Below, piece by piece: positions 4,338 through 33,763 of a DNA stretch of 39,610 bases (positions within the stretch are counted from its first letter, which is position 1; each line of letters starts with the position of its first letter). The notes beneath the pieces are model-generated. The model made no database searches and was not told the origin of the DNA. It saw only the letters and a list, made by a program, of their open reading frames with translations. Both the position numbers and the translations under genes were made by a program. This DNA is from an uncultured Bacilli bacterium (GTDB lineage: Bacteria; Bacillota_I; Bacilli_A; RF39; UBA660): contig CALVQH010000007.1 in assembly GCA_944358115.1 (NCBI GenBank), positions 1 to 39,610 of the forward strand. Direction: 5' to 3'.

Positions 4338-4372
4338 GAAAAAATGCTAGAAAGAAAATTTTCTAGCATTTT
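4338..4372 (-). terminator. metG: metG terminator
   Basis: A 13-bp perfect inverted repeat (arms 4341-4353 and 4360-4372) with a 6-base loop is followed on the minus strand by a T-run. The metG stop codon lies inside the first arm. Confidence 0.85.
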
Positions 4373-5892
4373 GTTTCGATTCTGTTAAATAGAATTTGGG
4401 GCTCATTTAATGTAATATCTTGTTCTAACTTGCCAAAATATTCTAAAGAATCATAATCTGTTTGTTTGGTATTTAGTTGTGTTAATATTTTTTCACTTGT
4501 TTCAGGAATAAATGGACTTAATAAAATAGCACAAATACGAATTGATTCTAATAGATTATAAAGAACAGTTGCCAATCTATCTTTTTTACTTTCATCTTTA
4601 GCAAGTGTCCATGGAGTTGTTTCATCAATGTATTTATTACATTTTCTTAGTACTTCCATAATTTCTTCTATTGCTTCATTTACTTTTAAACCATTCATTT
4701 TTTCTTCAACAATGTCTTTTAGGTTAGATACTGCATGTATTAATTCATCATCAATTTCTTCTAACACTTTTGGATTTACTGGTTTACCATCAAAATATTT
4801 GTAAGACATAGAAATCGTCCGATTAACAAGGTTTCCTAATGTATTGGCTAAATCACTATTCGTACGAGCAATTAGAGCTTCTTCAGAGAAATTACCGTCG
4901 CTGCCAAATGGTACTTCTCTTAGGGCATAATATCTTACCGCATCAACACCATAAGCATTAATGTATTCTCTTGGATCTTTATAATTTCCTAAACTCTTAG
5001 AAATCTTTCCCCCATCAATTTTTAACCAACCATGGCCAAAGACTTGTTTTGGTAAAGGTAGATCAAGAGCCATTAATAAACATGGCCAAATAATTGTGTG
5101 GAAACGAACAATTTCTTTGCCAACTAAATGAAGATCTGCTGGCCAATATTTTTTCATTAGTGTATCATCTTCGGGATAACCTAAGGTTGTAATATAATTA
5201 GATAGCGCATCTACCCATACATAGACAACATGATCTGGGTCAAAATCAACTGGGATTCCCCATTTAAAACTTGTTCTTGATACACATAAATCTTCTAGTC
5301 CTGGATTGATAAAATTATTTAACATTTCATTTTTACGCGATAATGGTAAAATAAAGTCAGGATGTTCATTATAATATTTTACTAAACGGTCTTGATATTT
5401 GGATAATTTAAAGAAGTATGCTTCTTCACTTACCATTTTAATCTCTCTACCACAATCTGGGCATTTACCATCAACTAATTGTGACTCAGTCCAAAAAGAT
5501 TCACATGGAATACAATAAAGTCCTTTATATTCGCCTTTATAAATATCCCCTTGCTCATATAACTTTTTAAATATTTTTTGAACTCTTCTAACATGATAAT
5601 CATCTGTTGTTCTCATAAAATAGTCATAAGAAATATTAAGAGATTTCCATAAATCTTTGGCATCTTCAATAATTTTATCAACATATTCTTGTGGAGTTAC
5701 ACCAGCTTCATGGGCCTTTTTCTCAATTTTTTCGCCATGTTCATCCGTTCCGGTTTGAAAGTATACATCATAACCAGTTAATCTTTTGTATCTTGCTATC
5801 GCATCCGCGATAATCGTTGTGTAACAATGGCCAATGTGAAAATTAGCACTTGGATAATAAATTGGGGTTGAAATATAAAATTTTTCTTTCAT
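4363..5892 (-). CDS. metG: Methionine-tRNA ligase, short form
   Basis: MetRS charges tRNA-Met with methionine using ATP. The class I motifs are HIGH at residues 19-22 and KISKS at 296-300, a variant of KMSKS. Cys127, Cys130, Cys144 and Cys147 form the zinc knuckle of the connective-peptide domain. At 509 residues the protein ends after the anticodon-binding helical domain and lacks the C-terminal EMAP-like tRNA-binding domain found in Bacillus MetRS (about 660 residues). It is the second gene of an operon with the HAD phosphatase (15-bp gap), under a T-box leader at 6541-6775. Confidence 0.97.
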   Translation of the reverse strand: MKEKFYISTPIYYPSANFHIGHCYTTIIADAIARYKRLTGYDVYFQTGTDEHGEKIEKKAHEAGVTPQEYVDKIIEDAKDLWKSLNISYDYFMRTTDDYHVRRVQKIFKKLYEQGDIYKGEYKGLYCIPCESFWTESQLVDGKCPDCGREIKMVSEEAYFFKLSKYQDRLVKYYNEHPDFILPLSRKNEMLNNFINPGLEDLCVSRTSFKWGIPVDFDPDHVVYVWVDALSNYITTLGYPEDDTLMKKYWPADLHLVGKEIVRFHTIIWPCLLMALDLPLPKQVFGHGWLKIDGGKISKSLGNYKDPREYINAYGVDAVRYYALREVPFGSDGNFSEEALIARTNSDLANTLGNLVNRTISMSYKYFDGKPVNPKVLEEIDDELIHAVSNLKDIVEEKMNGLKVNEAIEEIMEVLRKCNKYIDETTPWTLAKDESKKDRLATVLYNLLESIRICAILLSPFIPETSEKILTQLNTKQTDYDSLEYFGKLEQDITLNEPQILFNRIETKC

Positions 5893-5907: not shown

Positions 5908-6519
5908 CTATAAAATACTTTTTAATTCATATACATTTTTGATTGTTGGCACTAATTCGTTCTTTTCACTAATTAAATAAGTAGACATTCCTAGCTCTTC
6001 TGCCGGTTTAATATCTATTAAATAATTATCGCCAACCATTAAACATTCTTTTGGGAGACGTGCTCCCATCGCTTTTTCAAAGGCTTTTTTATTTGGTTTC
6101 ATTACTTCTTCACCACTTATGATTTCTTCAAAATAATCTACAATTTGAGCCTTTTTTAAACGATTATACTGAGAAATATGAAACCAATTGGTTAATACTA
6201 CTAACTCATATTTTTGATGTAAATAAGAAAGTGTAGATATTAGTTCTTCATCTTCCTCACTCATGGAACCTAAATGTTTTAACCAACACTTAATTAGAGA
6301 GTCATCTACATTTTGATTGTATAACTGATTAAAATAATTTGTCATATTTTCTATGGTTATTTGGGTTAAATTTTCTTGATATCCTTTTTTAAATTTAGAA
6401 AGAGTTTGATCTTCGATGGTAATATGACATTCTTCTAAGGCTTTTTTTGCTGCTTCGTCATATTCTTCTTTCCAAGAAATTAAGGTATTATCTAAGTCAA
6501 ATATGATTCTTTTTAACAT
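5908..6519 (-). CDS. HAD-superfamily hydrolase
   Basis: The 203-residue protein has all HAD motifs: FDLDNTLI with Asp8 and Asp10 (motif I), LTNW (motif II), the lysine in MKPNKKAF (motif III) and GDNYLIDI (motif IV). The helical cap after motif I resembles YjjG/YfnB-type phosphatases that act on nucleotides or sugar phosphates, but the substrate is not predictable. The start ATG at 6519 has a perfect AAAGGAGG nearby. It is the first gene after a methionine-type T-box and is cotranscribed with metG, so it is probably expressed when charged tRNA-Met is low. Confidence 0.9.
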   Translation of the reverse strand: MLKRIIFDLDNTLISWKEEYDEAAKKALEECHITIEDQTLSKFKKGYQENLTQITIENMTNYFNQLYNQNVDDSLIKCWLKHLGSMSEEDEELISTLSYLHQKYELVVLTNWFHISQYNRLKKAQIVDYFEEIISGEEVMKPNKKAFEKAMGARLPKECLMVGDNYLIDIKPAEELGMSTYLISEKNELVPTIKNVYELKSIL

Positions 6520-6540: not shown

Positions 6541-6775
6541 TAAAAAACCATAAACTAAGGACGAGTTTGGCTTGCCAATGCATACCTTTTTCCCGCGGTA
6601 CCACCTTAATTCATGATTTTATTATTCATGCTCTTTTACTCCAATAACGGTGAGTGGCCGTTTAAACTCCAGAGTCATCTTCCATATTACCTTGTGTTTA
6701 TTTTCATCAGCCATAAACTTTCTCTAACAACAATAATATGTACTCATTCCTTCAACATTTAAGATAGATTCATTA
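6541..6775 (-). promoter_or_regulatory. T-box leader (methionine) upstream of HAD-metG
   Basis: On the minus strand this 296-bp gap contains the conserved T-box sequence AAGGTGGTACCGCGGG (6592-6607), which captures the acceptor end of uncharged tRNA. Upstream is a stem-I region with a GAGTA element (about 6742) and candidate AUG specifier codons at 6683-6685 and 6676-6678. Between the T-box and the HAD start are a GGCAAGCC palindrome and a hairpin followed by TTTTTT (about 6541-6565) that can act as the terminator. The gene it controls, metG, makes the methionine specifier likely. I did not fold it computationally. Confidence 0.9.
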
Positions 6776-7393: not shown

Positions 7394-7422
7394 TTGAATT
7401 TAATTGCAAAATCATTTATAAT
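7394..7422 (+). promoter_or_regulatory. Sigma-A promoter of the structured RNA
   Basis: TTGAAT (7394-7399), a 17-bp spacer and a perfect TATAAT (7417-7422). The predicted start, around 7430, falls exactly at the 5' end of the long-range stem of the RNA described next. Confidence 0.75.
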
Positions 7423-7429
7423 CAAATTA

Positions 7430-7670
7430 GTAGAGCATTAGGTCTAAATGCCTACTTTTCGATTTGGTAGACATTGACTTCTGAGTTGTTTGTAACAATG
7501 ATGATTGTCGATGTCTTTTTTGGTTTTACCCAATTTATAAGCTTCAGAATTAAATTCTTCATGCTAACTAAGCGCAACTCCTCTCTATTGTCAACCAAAA
7601 CCTATTGTAAGGGAGGTAAGAACAATAGAAAATTGTCTAGATTAGTAGACACCAGCCCTAATGCTCAAGT
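7430..7670 (+). ncRNA. Unassigned structured RNA, about 240 nt
   Basis: A plus-strand promoter leads straight into a sequence with extensive self-complementarity and no credible gene. GAGCATTAGG (7433-7442) pairs perfectly with CCTAATGCTC (7657-7666), closing the molecule. Inside are GACATTGAC (7470-7478) with GTCGATGTC (7507-7515), GGTTTT (7522-7527) with AAAACC (7597-7602), a hairpin at 7540-7565, and TCTATTGT (7584-7591) with ACAATAGA (7622-7629). GAGTTG with CAACTC is an alternative pairing. The GGTTTT/AAAACC helix crosses the 7584/7629 helix, giving a possible pseudoknot. Size and closed ends resemble 6S RNA or the raiA-motif class, but I recognise no diagnostic sequence. RNase P RNA, tmRNA and known riboswitches do not fit. 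The 3' end is unclear: no strong terminator follows. Confidence 0.65.
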
Positions 7671-7757
7671 TATTATTATCAAGGATTGTTTAGGAAAAAG
7701 CAAGAAAAAGCGTATGACAAAGTTCGACTCTTTCCTACATCTATGTCGAAAATAAAA

Positions 7758-7787
7758 AAGAACCTATTATTTTAAATATTTGGGTTC
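7758..7787 (-). terminator. Terminator of the downstream XRE gene
   Basis: Read on the minus strand, GAACC and GGTTC flank an AT-rich self-complementary loop and are followed by TTTTTT. The regulator's stop codon lies within the hairpin. Confidence 0.55.
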
Positions 7788-8222
7788 ATCAATTTTACCT
7801 AGAAGGTAGTCTGCTGAGATGTTGTATTTTTTGCATATTTGATAAAGAAATGGTGTTGCAATTAAATTTTTTCCACGTTCATATTTTGAGATAGTGGAAT
7901 TGTCCACATTTAATTCTTTTGACATTTGAATTTGAGATAAACCAAATTCATTACGCAACTTTTTTAGACGTTTTGTTAATAAAGCTTTGTTAATATTTTT
8001 CTTTGAATTTATATAACTATTTTTATCTGTTAAATCAAAAAGATAATCTATAGAAATATTAAAGTAATTGCAAAAATTGTTAAGATGCTGGATTGGGATA
8101 ATACTATTTTGTAATTCGTATTCTTTATATGTAGTTCTACTAATTCCTAGAATTTTGGCCATATTTTCTTGAGTTATCAAATCATAGGTTCTTAATAGCT
8201 TCATTCTTTTGCTATAGTTCAT
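7767..8222 (-). CDS. Double-HTH XRE-family transcriptional regulator (copy 1)
   Basis: This 151-residue protein carries two Cro/C1-type helix-turn-helix domains: about residues 6-60 (MKLLRTYDLITQENMAKILG, then SRTTYKEYE) and 84-140 (LKKLRNEFGLSQIQMSKELN, then DNSTISKYERG). Each ends with the NISIDYL/NISADYLLG helix common in XRE proteins. No sensor or dimerisation domain is added. It is a close paralogue of the adjacent gene at 8345-8803. The upstream region of each copy has the same inverted repeat and a divergent promoter, so the pair arose by tandem duplication and may autoregulate. Start: ATG 8222 with GGTGAT upstream. Confidence 0.88.
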   Translation of the reverse strand: MNYSKRMKLLRTYDLITQENMAKILGISRTTYKEYELQNSIIPIQHLNNFCNYFNISIDYLFDLTDKNSYINSKKNINKALLTKRLKKLRNEFGLSQIQMSKELNVDNSTISKYERGKNLIATPFLYQICKKYNISADYLLGKIDEPKYLK

Positions 8223-8956: not shown

Positions 8957-10219
8957 TTGAAGAATAAAGAGATAGAATTCGAAACATTACATTTTAATAA
9001 ACATAGAATACATTTTTTAATTAGTTTTGTCTGTGTAGTAATACTTCTGGTAGTATTTATTATTGGTAGAAGTCATGCAAGATATAGAGTTACAGAAAGT
9101 ATTCCATTAGTAAGCGGAACGATAAATTATAGTTTACCAGATCTAAATATTGTTGGGCTATACATTGATGGAGTAGAAGCAACAGAACTAGATAGTTCTA
9201 AAAACTATAAATTAGATACTTCTAAAAGTACATGTACTTATAAGGATAGTAGTATAATTAGTAATTTAACATTAAGTTATGATAGCAATACTAGAGCATT
9301 TAGTATTAGTCCATATACAACAAAAGGAACAAAGTGTACATTATATTTTGAAGAAAGTTCATGTGGTTCAGCTTGCCAAACAATCTTAGCTAACAAAACC
9401 ATATCAGTAAGGACAGATTTTAGTACTACTGTAAAAGAAGATACAACAGGAACAATTTACCAAGCAGAAGATGATGATGGAACAACCTACTACTATGCAG
9501 GAGCACCAACGGATAACTGGGTACAATTTGCCGGATTCTATTGGCGAATTATAAGGATTAATGGCGATGGAACAATCAGGTTAATCTATAATGGAACTAG
9601 TACGGTAACAACTGGAACAGGAACTTATATAGATTACAATGCATTTAATTCAAACTATAGACTCAGCTCCTCTGTAAGTTTTGGCTCAAGTCCTATTAAG
9701 GGAATACTTTATACATGGTATCAAAATAATTTAGTAGCTGAAGCTGATAAGATTGATAGAAATGCTGGATTTTGTAACGATAGGACATCATATAGTGAAG
9801 AAGAAACAGATGAAACTGTTTATGGAGCAAATAATAGACTAGCCAGTAATAAAGCACCAAGTTTTAAATGTGAAAACGATAGCGACTTATATACAACAAG
9901 TGGCAGTAGTAAAGGAAATAAAGCGTTACAATATCCAATAGGACTCATCACGGCAGATGAAGTATCCTATGCCGGAGGAGTATATGGACTTAGCAACTCA
10001 AATAGAAGTTATTACCTATATACAAATCAAGATTATTGGACGATGTCTCCGTTTGTCTTTACCGGTACTTGGGCTTGGGGTTTTTATGTGGATTCGTCTG
10101 GCTACTTCACTCAACAAGGCGTGCAAATCTCCTATGGTGTTCGACCTGTTATTAATCTTTCGGCAGATGTTATAATTACTGGTTCTGGTACGATATCTGA
10201 CCCTTATGTTGTGCAATAG
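8957..10219 (+). CDS. Membrane-anchored surface protein with C-type-lectin-like C-terminus
   Basis: The 420-residue protein has an N-terminal membrane segment (about 18-37) and an extracellular part. After a beta-rich N-terminal region, two cysteine-bearing stretches (CxxxC near 135) lead into a domain starting VQFAGFYWRIIRINGDGTIRL and ending YWTMSP, then WGFYVDSSGYF, then GVRPVINL. This W/YW...SP...SG...GVRP pattern is that of the C-type-lectin or formylglycine-enzyme-like fold used as a display domain, also seen in DUF6273-type proteins. Start: TTG 8957, with GTAGGAA upstream. Codon use changes abruptly at about 10040, from AGT/AGA/GGA/TTA to TCG/TCT/GGC/GTG/CGA. This C-terminal segment has a relative at 33586-33763. 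The ligand is unknown. A divergent XRE gene probably regulates it. Confidence 0.8.
   Translation: MKNKEIEFETLHFNKHRIHFLISFVCVVILLVVFIIGRSHARYRVTESIPLVSGTINYSLPDLNIVGLYIDGVEATELDSSKNYKLDTSKSTCTYKDSSIISNLTLSYDSNTRAFSISPYTTKGTKCTLYFEESSCGSACQTILANKTISVRTDFSTTVKEDTTGTIYQAEDDDGTTYYYAGAPTDNWVQFAGFYWRIIRINGDGTIRLIYNGTSTVTTGTGTYIDYNAFNSNYRLSSSVSFGSSPIKGILYTWYQNNLVAEADKIDRNAGFCNDRTSYSEEETDETVYGANNRLASNKAPSFKCENDSDLYTTSGSSKGNKALQYPIGLITADEVSYAGGVYGLSNSNRSYYLYTNQDYWTMSPFVFTGTWAWGFYVDSSGYFTQQGVQISYGVRPVINLSADVIITGSGTISDPYVVQ
10040..10219 (+). other. Candidate variable region (C-type-lectin-like tail)
   Basis: This segment encodes the last 59 or so residues of the surface protein. It aligns at DNA level with 33586-33763. 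In two ungapped blocks (10052-10069 and 10085-10111, 45 bases) I count 14 differences, 10 of them where the other copy has A. That skew is expected for adenine-directed mutagenesis by diversity-generating retroelements. One codon-length gap on each side and four non-A changes show that the other copy is not its direct template. Confidence 0.4.
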
Positions 10220-33376: not shown

Positions 33377-33585
33377 GGAAAAATGTGATAAAACACATAA
33401 AAATAACTGGAATTTTGTGATGAAATGCTTAAAAATAGTTAGAAGAATGTGATATAAACGTTGATTTTAACTGGATTTTGGTGAAGTTATAGAAATATTT
33501 TTTAGTAATGATATGGATAAAAATTTGTTAATAATTATATATTAGTTAGTATTATAATAATATGGATTAATCTATTAATATGCAG
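33376..33585. other. AT-rich intergenic stretch
   Basis: No gene is visible. Short imperfect repeats of TAACTGGATTTTGTGA type occur twice (around 33404 and 33468). A TATAAT at 33553-33558 lies about 30 bp before the lectin-like tail fragment, but without a well-placed -35. Confidence 0.4.
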
Positions 33586-33763
33586 CATGTCTCCGTATAA
33601 CTATAACGGCAACGCTAACGTGTTCAATGTGAATTCGTCTGGCAACCTCAACTACGGCAACGTGTATTGGGCTGAGTCTGGTGTGCGTCCAGTTATTAAT
33701 ATAGCATCAAATGTTACGATTACTGGTTCTGGAACCATATCTGACCCTTATGTTGTTCAATGA
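33586..33763 (+). pseudogene. Isolated C-type-lectin-like tail (gene remnant or template-like cassette)
   Basis: The plus strand reads SMSPYNYNGNANVFNV, then NSSGNLNYG and GVRPVINI, ending ITGSGTISDPYVVQ and a TGA stop. It is homologous to the last 59 or so residues of the protein at 8957-10219, with the same final motif. Nothing upstream encodes the rest of that protein, and ATG 33587 has no ribosome-binding site. Asparagine is encoded mostly by AAC (seven AAC, two AAT in 28 codons), unlike the AAT-rich genome, and local GC is higher. Such AAC density is typical of template repeats in diversity-generating retroelements. A terminator follows at 33768-33796. Confidence 0.75.

What the first reader, a model, noticed from the sequence alone, without database searches (positions are those of the whole stretch)
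7394..7670. Strong promoter driving an unidentified, highly structured RNA next to spoVT
A 17-spaced sigma-A promoter starts exactly at a perfect 10-bp long-range stem that closes about 235 nt containing at least four further helices, one of them crossing another (possible pseudoknot). No known class is recognisable by eye. The position beside a sporulation regulator makes a 6S-like or sporulation-linked RNA plausible.
Basis: partly seen in the sequence, partly recalled or inferred. Interest (0 to 1): 0.65.

Follow-up and report, generated by a model that had tools for sequence, protein, structure and literature searches.

The report
Likely small toxin with antisense RNA
The structured RNA seen beside spoVT is one half of a many-copied gene pair in uncultured gut bacteria: on the opposite strand lies a tiny protein gene that looks like a self-poison, apparently kept silent by a short antisense RNA and possibly switched on when sporulation starts.

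Summary
The promoter and the 10-bp stem are real, but the RNA was read on the less informative strand. The element (window 7394-7729) is a convergent gene pair. The minus strand carries a promoter, a 5' UTR and a 36-codon ORF (7562-7452). The plus-strand promoter should make only a ~92-nt antisense RNA, ending at a hairpin plus T6 (7470-7521). The 10-bp stem (7433-7442/7657-7666) joins the 5' and 3' ends of the minus-strand mRNA, as in hok and aapA toxin mRNAs. A model of the antisense RNA finds copies in 35 of 36 genomes of the genus (Candidatus Caccenecus-like gut Bacilli) and in 0 of 24 outside it. The stems covary, the ORF recurs in 43 of 49 full-length copies, and the peptides match no known family. 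Upstream of the minus promoter lie tandem TGTCGAA boxes, the Spo0A core site: 59 of 79 copies, 0.2 expected; 35 of the 36 genomes encode Spo0A. Best reading: a new family of type I toxin-antitoxin loci, probably Spo0A-controlled. Transcription, toxicity and Spo0A binding are untested. The spoVT neighbour is incidental (2 of 28 loci).

The parts
7394..7422 (+). promoter of the antisense RNA: TTGAAT, 17 nt, TATAAT
   Evidence: conserved position in other copies
7430..7521 (+). predicted antisense RNA, about 92 nt: 5' hairpin 7430-7455, terminator hairpin 7470-7515 followed by TTTTTT 7516-7521
   Evidence: start and end are inferred, no transcript seen
7452..7562 (-). small ORF, 36 codons, MKNLILKLINWVKPKKTSTIIIVTNNSEVNVYQIEK
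7430..7669 (-). predicted toxin mRNA, about 240 nt; terminator hairpin at its 3' end is the complement of 7430-7455
   Evidence: ends are inferred
7433..7442 (-). 3' arm of the long-range stem P1 of the mRNA
7657..7666 (-). 5' arm of the long-range stem P1 of the mRNA
7578..7585 (-). Shine-Dalgarno-like GAGAGGAG, 15 nt before the ATG
   Evidence: predicted mostly paired
7612..7617 (-). anti-Shine-Dalgarno-like ACCTCC
   Evidence: pairing not supported by covariation
7675..7703 (-). promoter of the mRNA: TTGCTT (7703-7698), 17 nt, GATAAT (7680-7675)
7713..7729 (-). tandem Spo0A-type boxes AGTCGAA-CTT-TGTCATA (3 of 14 mismatches to TGTCGAA-N3-TGTCGAA)
7767..8222 (-). Xre-type double-HTH gene, frequent neighbour of the element
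8957..10219 (+). surface-protein gene of a family with 48 matches in this genome, frequent neighbour of the element

Best explanation
The locus is a type I toxin-antitoxin-like pair. A minus-strand promoter, preceded by tandem Spo0A-type boxes, makes a ~240-nt mRNA whose 5' and 3' ends pair (P1, continued by P2), with a structured 5' UTR and a cationic peptide of 36 aa. The plus-strand promoter at the far end makes a ~92-nt antisense RNA of two hairpins, complementary to the second half of the ORF and the 3' end; its terminator hairpin doubles as codons of the peptide. Inferred mechanism: the full-length mRNA is held inert by its closed fold, and the antisense RNA binds the 3' part and blocks or destroys mRNA that opens. 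When Spo0A~P rises at sporulation entry the mRNA outruns the antisense RNA and the peptide acts on the cell itself, most likely at the membrane. Shown here: layout, conservation, covariation, boxes, presence of spo0A. Inferred: transcription, translation, toxicity, neutralisation, Spo0A binding.
For: ORF in 43 of 49 full-length copies; pN/pS 0.49 over 17 copies. Antisense RNA hairpins: 94.8% of cells paired, 9 of 18 pairs with both-side changes, 0 of 500 shuffles as high. Long-range stem: 8 of 10 pairs with both-side changes. G-U pairs place P1+P2 on the minus strand (63 against 24) and both hairpins on the plus strand (25 against 7; 39 against 12). Model R1, built from the antisense RNA alone, finds copies in 35 of 36 genus genomes and 0 of 24 others; in 37 fresh copies the distant stem partner is there with at most 1 mismatch in 28, 0.4 expected. 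Minus promoter score of at least 9 in 46 of 79 copies, 8.7 expected; tandem boxes with at most 3 mismatches in 59 of 79, 0.2 expected. Spo0A_C in 35 of 36 genus genomes. A sister element with the same promoter and layout encodes a 26-27-aa hydrophobic peptide.
Against: No transcript, no toxicity test. The peptide has no clear membrane helix; amphipathicity of residues 2-12 is only suggestive (25 of 38 peptides at p below 0.1, the window's own at 0.104). Six of 49 copies lack the ORF. Removing the mRNA's 3' end does not free the SD in the predicted fold, so how the closed form silences is unclear. The pseudoknot is unsupported. The window's own boxes are degenerate.
Confidence: 0.77

Rival explanations
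1. A small-protein gene under antisense control whose peptide is not a self-toxin: a secreted antimicrobial, signal or sporulation peptide, for instance aimed at sister cells when Spo0A is active.
For: Cationic peptides (38 of 38 positive); tandem Spo0A-type boxes.
Against: No signal sequence or export genes seen beside it (by eye); fold-back mRNA plus convergent antisense RNA is the layout of type I toxins; the sister family has a membrane-type peptide.
Confidence: 0.12
2. The plus-strand RNA is the functional product (a regulatory or housekeeping RNA) and the ORF opposite it is a by-product.
For: Antisense hairpins are the best conserved part; six of 49 copies lack the ORF.
Against: ORF in 43 of 49 copies, pN/pS 0.49; a conserved minus-strand promoter; G-U pairs of P1+P2 favour the minus strand.
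Confidence: 0.06
3. A MITE-like mobile repeat whose terminal inverted repeats merely look like an RNA stem.
For: 1 to 19 copies per genome at varying sites; paired ends would also change together under transposase recognition.
Against: Both promoters lie outside the repeats and are conserved; an ORF lies inside; the plus-strand 5' arm also forms a second, covarying hairpin; G-U use is strand-biased. Target-site duplications were not looked for.
Confidence: 0.04

Closest known systems
aapA/IsoA type I toxin-antitoxin loci of Helicobacter pylori (PMC6733600, passages read)
   Same: Several chromosomal copies, tiny peptide, overlapping cis antisense RNA, toxin mRNA closed by pairing of its 5' and 3' ends
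   Different: No family match of the peptides; antisense RNA starts at the mRNA's 3' end; Bacilli; tandem Spo0A-type boxes
hok/Sok (as described in PMC6733600; rest recalled)
   Same: Fold-back of the mRNA 3' end onto its 5' end; inert full-length mRNA expected
   Different: Unrelated peptide; antisense RNA position differs
Convergent Gram-positive type I pairs such as bsrG/SR4, txpA/RatA and fst RNAI/RNAII (recalled; reviews seen in listings, and passages of PMC8309996)
   Same: Convergent toxin mRNA and antisense RNA overlapping at the toxin's 3' part
   Different: Those peptides have a membrane helix and Pfam matches were not found here
timP/TimR (PMC11228461, abstract and opening text)
   Same: An RNA first taken for non-coding turned out to be a structured toxin mRNA
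   Different: Enterobacterial, unrelated sequence; its functional pseudoknot has no supported counterpart here
Sister element 'B' in the same genome (L253, L257)
   Same: Same tandem-box promoter, 5'-3' pairing, antisense terminator, HTH and surface-gene neighbours
   Different: 27-aa hydrophobic peptide; other stem sequences

Membership tests
Type I toxin-antitoxin systems | small protein-coding mRNA | tested here: met
   ORF in 43 of 49 copies, pN/pS 0.49; computed, not shown to be translated
Type I toxin-antitoxin systems | antisense RNA overlapping the mRNA, with its own promoter and terminator | tested here: met
   promoter, covarying hairpins and T-run; no transcript data
Type I toxin-antitoxin systems | peptide is toxic to its own cell | not testable with these tools
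   needs expression experiment
Type I toxin-antitoxin systems | antisense RNA neutralises by base pairing | not testable with these tools
   full complementarity by position only
Known type I toxin families in Pfam and NCBIfam | family match of the peptide | tested here: not met
   38 peptides, only single weak unrelated hits; PDB none
hok/aapA-type closed mRNA | 5' end pairs with 3' end | tested here: met
hok/aapA-type closed mRNA | 3' trimming frees the ribosome site | tested here: inconclusive
   predicted SD pairing unchanged on trimming
Spo0A regulon | 0A boxes (TGTCGAA) at the promoter | tested here: met
   59 of 79 copies, 0.2 expected; the window's own copy has 3 of 14 mismatches
Spo0A regulon | Spo0A encoded in the genome | tested here: met
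   35 of 36 genus genomes
Spo0A regulon | Spo0A binds and changes expression | not testable with these tools
   needs gel shift and reporter
6S, raiA and other Rfam families | score above the family's gathering threshold | tested here: not met

The most novel reading that the evidence does not exclude
A genus of small-genome gut Bacilli carries an expanded set of Spo0A-triggered type I toxin loci (at least two sister families, up to 19 copies of one per genome), placed beside HTH regulators and retroelement-diversified surface genes. The self-poisoning peptides would be made when sporulation starts, as a lysis or commitment device, and would also make the surface-gene cassettes hard to lose.
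Probability: 0.35. Interest if true: 0.8.

Novelty: new variant of a known kind. Interest (0 to 1): 0.62.

Why it matters
Type I pairs are hard to find because the peptides are tiny and share no sequence; here the RNA signature led to a large family without a Pfam, NCBIfam or Rfam entry, in bacteria known mostly from metagenomes. If the Spo0A link holds, it ties a type I toxin directly to the decision to sporulate; my searches for that combination listed no paper whose title or abstract start reports it, and one search found no paper at all. It also shows how a toxin mRNA's mirror image can pass for a riboregulator.

Tried and rejected
Rfam at gathering and relaxed thresholds gave nothing for the element. 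Retron ncRNA and DGR template RNA were considered because the genome has reverse transcriptases; the copies are not beside them, so both were dropped. Viral origin: four IMG/VR pattern hits (L108-L111) did not match the full profile. One off-group pattern hit, L072 (Acidimicrobiia), gave no profile match. Two profile hits in another genus of the family cover part of the peptide and lie inside frames of 231 and 234 aa; judged unrelated. The pseudoknot was tested and not supported by covariation; an alignment-free count gave a modest excess. I expected trimming of the mRNA's 3' end to free the SD; the fold did not show it. The spoVT link was tested and rejected. Literature on type I pairs in Mollicutes (three papers, listing only) and on the genus name (no paper) led nowhere; one search found no paper on the side finding. 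Structure prediction was not run: the peptides are short and the aligned rows were typed letters.

Full report
What was claimed.

What is there. The promoter (7394-7422) and the stem (7433-7442 with 7657-7666) are as described. Rfam has no match for the element on either strand. A blastn search of 60 relatives found the element in 31 genomes, all in one genus, with up to 11 matches per genome; a second copy, 89% identical, lies elsewhere in the window's own genome. Records found by a pattern scan name the group as uncultured Bacilli, uncultured Mycoplasma or Candidatus Caccenecus. A DNA profile gathered 49 distinct full-length copies.

The other strand. In the 49 copies the minus strand shows a recurring ORF; the window peptide is MKNLILKLINWVKPKKTSTIIIVTNNSEVNVYQIEK (7562-7452). 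It is present in 43 of 49 copies; L008, L009, L012, L013, L018 and L037 lack it. The finder also accepted ATT and CTG starts; by eye the rows concerned also hold an internal ATG, GTG or TTG. Thirty-eight of the 43 peptides were aligned; the five left out are one identical row (L040), L115, and three near-repeats (second L066, L021, L027). pN/pS over 17 alignable copies is 0.49, and 0.56 in codons 2-13, outside the antisense terminator. The peptides match nothing in Pfam, NCBIfam or PHROGs beyond scattered weak hits in one or two members each and no PDB chain. All 38 carry net positive charge.

Two transcripts. The plus strand should terminate at a hairpin followed by six T (7470-7521), giving about 92 nt with two hairpins. 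On 46 distinct copies these two helices have 94.8% of cells paired and 9 of 18 pairs with both-side changes, 0 of 500 shuffles as high. The 10-bp stem has 8 of 10 pairs with both-side changes and 97.3% of cells paired. G-U pairs tell the strand: in the long-range helices P1+P2 they fall on the minus strand 63 times against 24 for the plus strand; in the 5' hairpin 7 against 25; in the terminator hairpin 12 against 39. So the long-range stem belongs to the minus-strand mRNA and the two hairpins to the plus-strand RNA. These counts include related copies and are not independent events. The minus strand folds at z -4.66.

An independent check. A covariance model of the antisense RNA alone (R1) finds copies in 35 of 60 genomes: 35 of 36 in the genus, 0 of 24 outside. 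I fetched 40 of its hits, mostly weaker ones. Two repeat earlier copies and one (L183) is cut by a contig end. Of the other 37, 28 hold the distant stem partner with at most one mismatch, 0.4 expected. A minus-strand frame of at least 25 aa opposite the antisense terminator is present in 36 of 40; two of these (L199, L207) do not look like the peptide. The peptide profile itself finds 30 of 60 relatives, all in the genus, and 13 of 288 genomes of the order, 11 in the genus.

Control region. A promoter scoring at least 9 of 12 sits at the expected place in 47 of 85 copies for the plus strand (11.0 expected) and in 46 of 79 for the minus strand (8.7 expected). Upstream of the minus promoter, TGTCGAA-N3-TGTCGAA occurs with at most 3 of 14 mismatches in 59 of 79 copies against 0.2 in shuffles. 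TGTCGAA is the core Spo0A box (PMC3485338, passages read). Spo0A_C is found in 35 of 36 genus genomes; the miss is G028. In the window's genome the tandem pattern with at most one mismatch has 12 matches against 4 for the reversed pattern; one lies about 100 bp upstream of spo0A itself, in the opposite orientation. The window's own boxes carry 3 mismatches, so this copy may be weakly controlled.

A sister family. Four of those 12 sites (in L253, L256, L257, L258) stand before another element with the same promoter, predicted 5'-3' pairing and, in all but the L256 copy, an ORF for a 26-27-aa hydrophobic peptide, e.g. MSEEIKYLFIIIMMLISIIRNDHQKRR. Its profile finds 12 of 60 genomes, all in the genus, and 7 places in the window's genome. 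This supports the type I reading, because this peptide has the usual look of a type I toxin (general knowledge and passages of PMC8309996).

Surroundings. Of 22 full copies examined, 14 have a surface-protein gene of the window's type within 3 kb and 10 show the order element, Xre-type gene, surface gene; several are the same site in related genomes, so independent cases are fewer. In the window's genome 6 of 9 listed loci of the two families lie within 1.5 kb of such a gene (p 0.0005); two further copies (L115, L125) were not in that count. spoVT is incidental: 2 of 28 spoVT loci carry the element; in other genomes the same flank holds other genes.

Interpretation and limits. The layout matches type I toxin-antitoxin loci, and the 5'-3' pairing looks like that of aapA and hok mRNAs (PMC6733600, passages read). 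It is not a member of a known toxin peptide family. Against the reading: no experiment, no clear membrane helix in this peptide, six copies without the ORF, and a predicted fold in which removing the 3' end does not free the SD. The pseudoknot is not supported. I put the type I reading at 0.77 and, given that reading, Spo0A control at about 0.7; both figures are judgement.

Noticed in passing
window 8957-10219 (+); 48 matches in the genome; L129, L133: The surface-protein family next door looks like the target set of a diversity-generating retroelement: an A-rich template-like copy (L129) differs from 12 variable ends at 183 of 368 A positions but only 144 of 834 others, and an RT gene with an Avd-like neighbour exists (L133). 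No template was found within the fetched stretches beside the RT.
   Followed up: partly
L253, L256, L257, L258, L264 (own genome, contigs C20, C13, C16): Second type I toxin-like family with a 26-27-aa hydrophobic peptide and the same tandem-box promoter; 7 places in this genome.
   Followed up: partly
L255 around 1501 (own genome, C4:39281): The same tandem-box promoter stands before an unrelated stretch with a hydrophobic 57-aa frame; possibly a third such element.
   Followed up: no
window 6554-6764 (-): T-box leader (Rfam RF00230, 108 bits) upstream of the HAD-like gene at 5908-6519 and the gene at 4363-5892, which reads like methionyl-tRNA synthetase (by eye).
   Followed up: no
window 33566-33760 (+): Remnant matching only the last 65 residues of the surface-protein family.
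   Followed up: no
L036 compared with L033: Copies look mosaic: nearly identical over most of the element but with different terminator-hairpin loops, suggesting exchange between copies (by eye).
   Followed up: no
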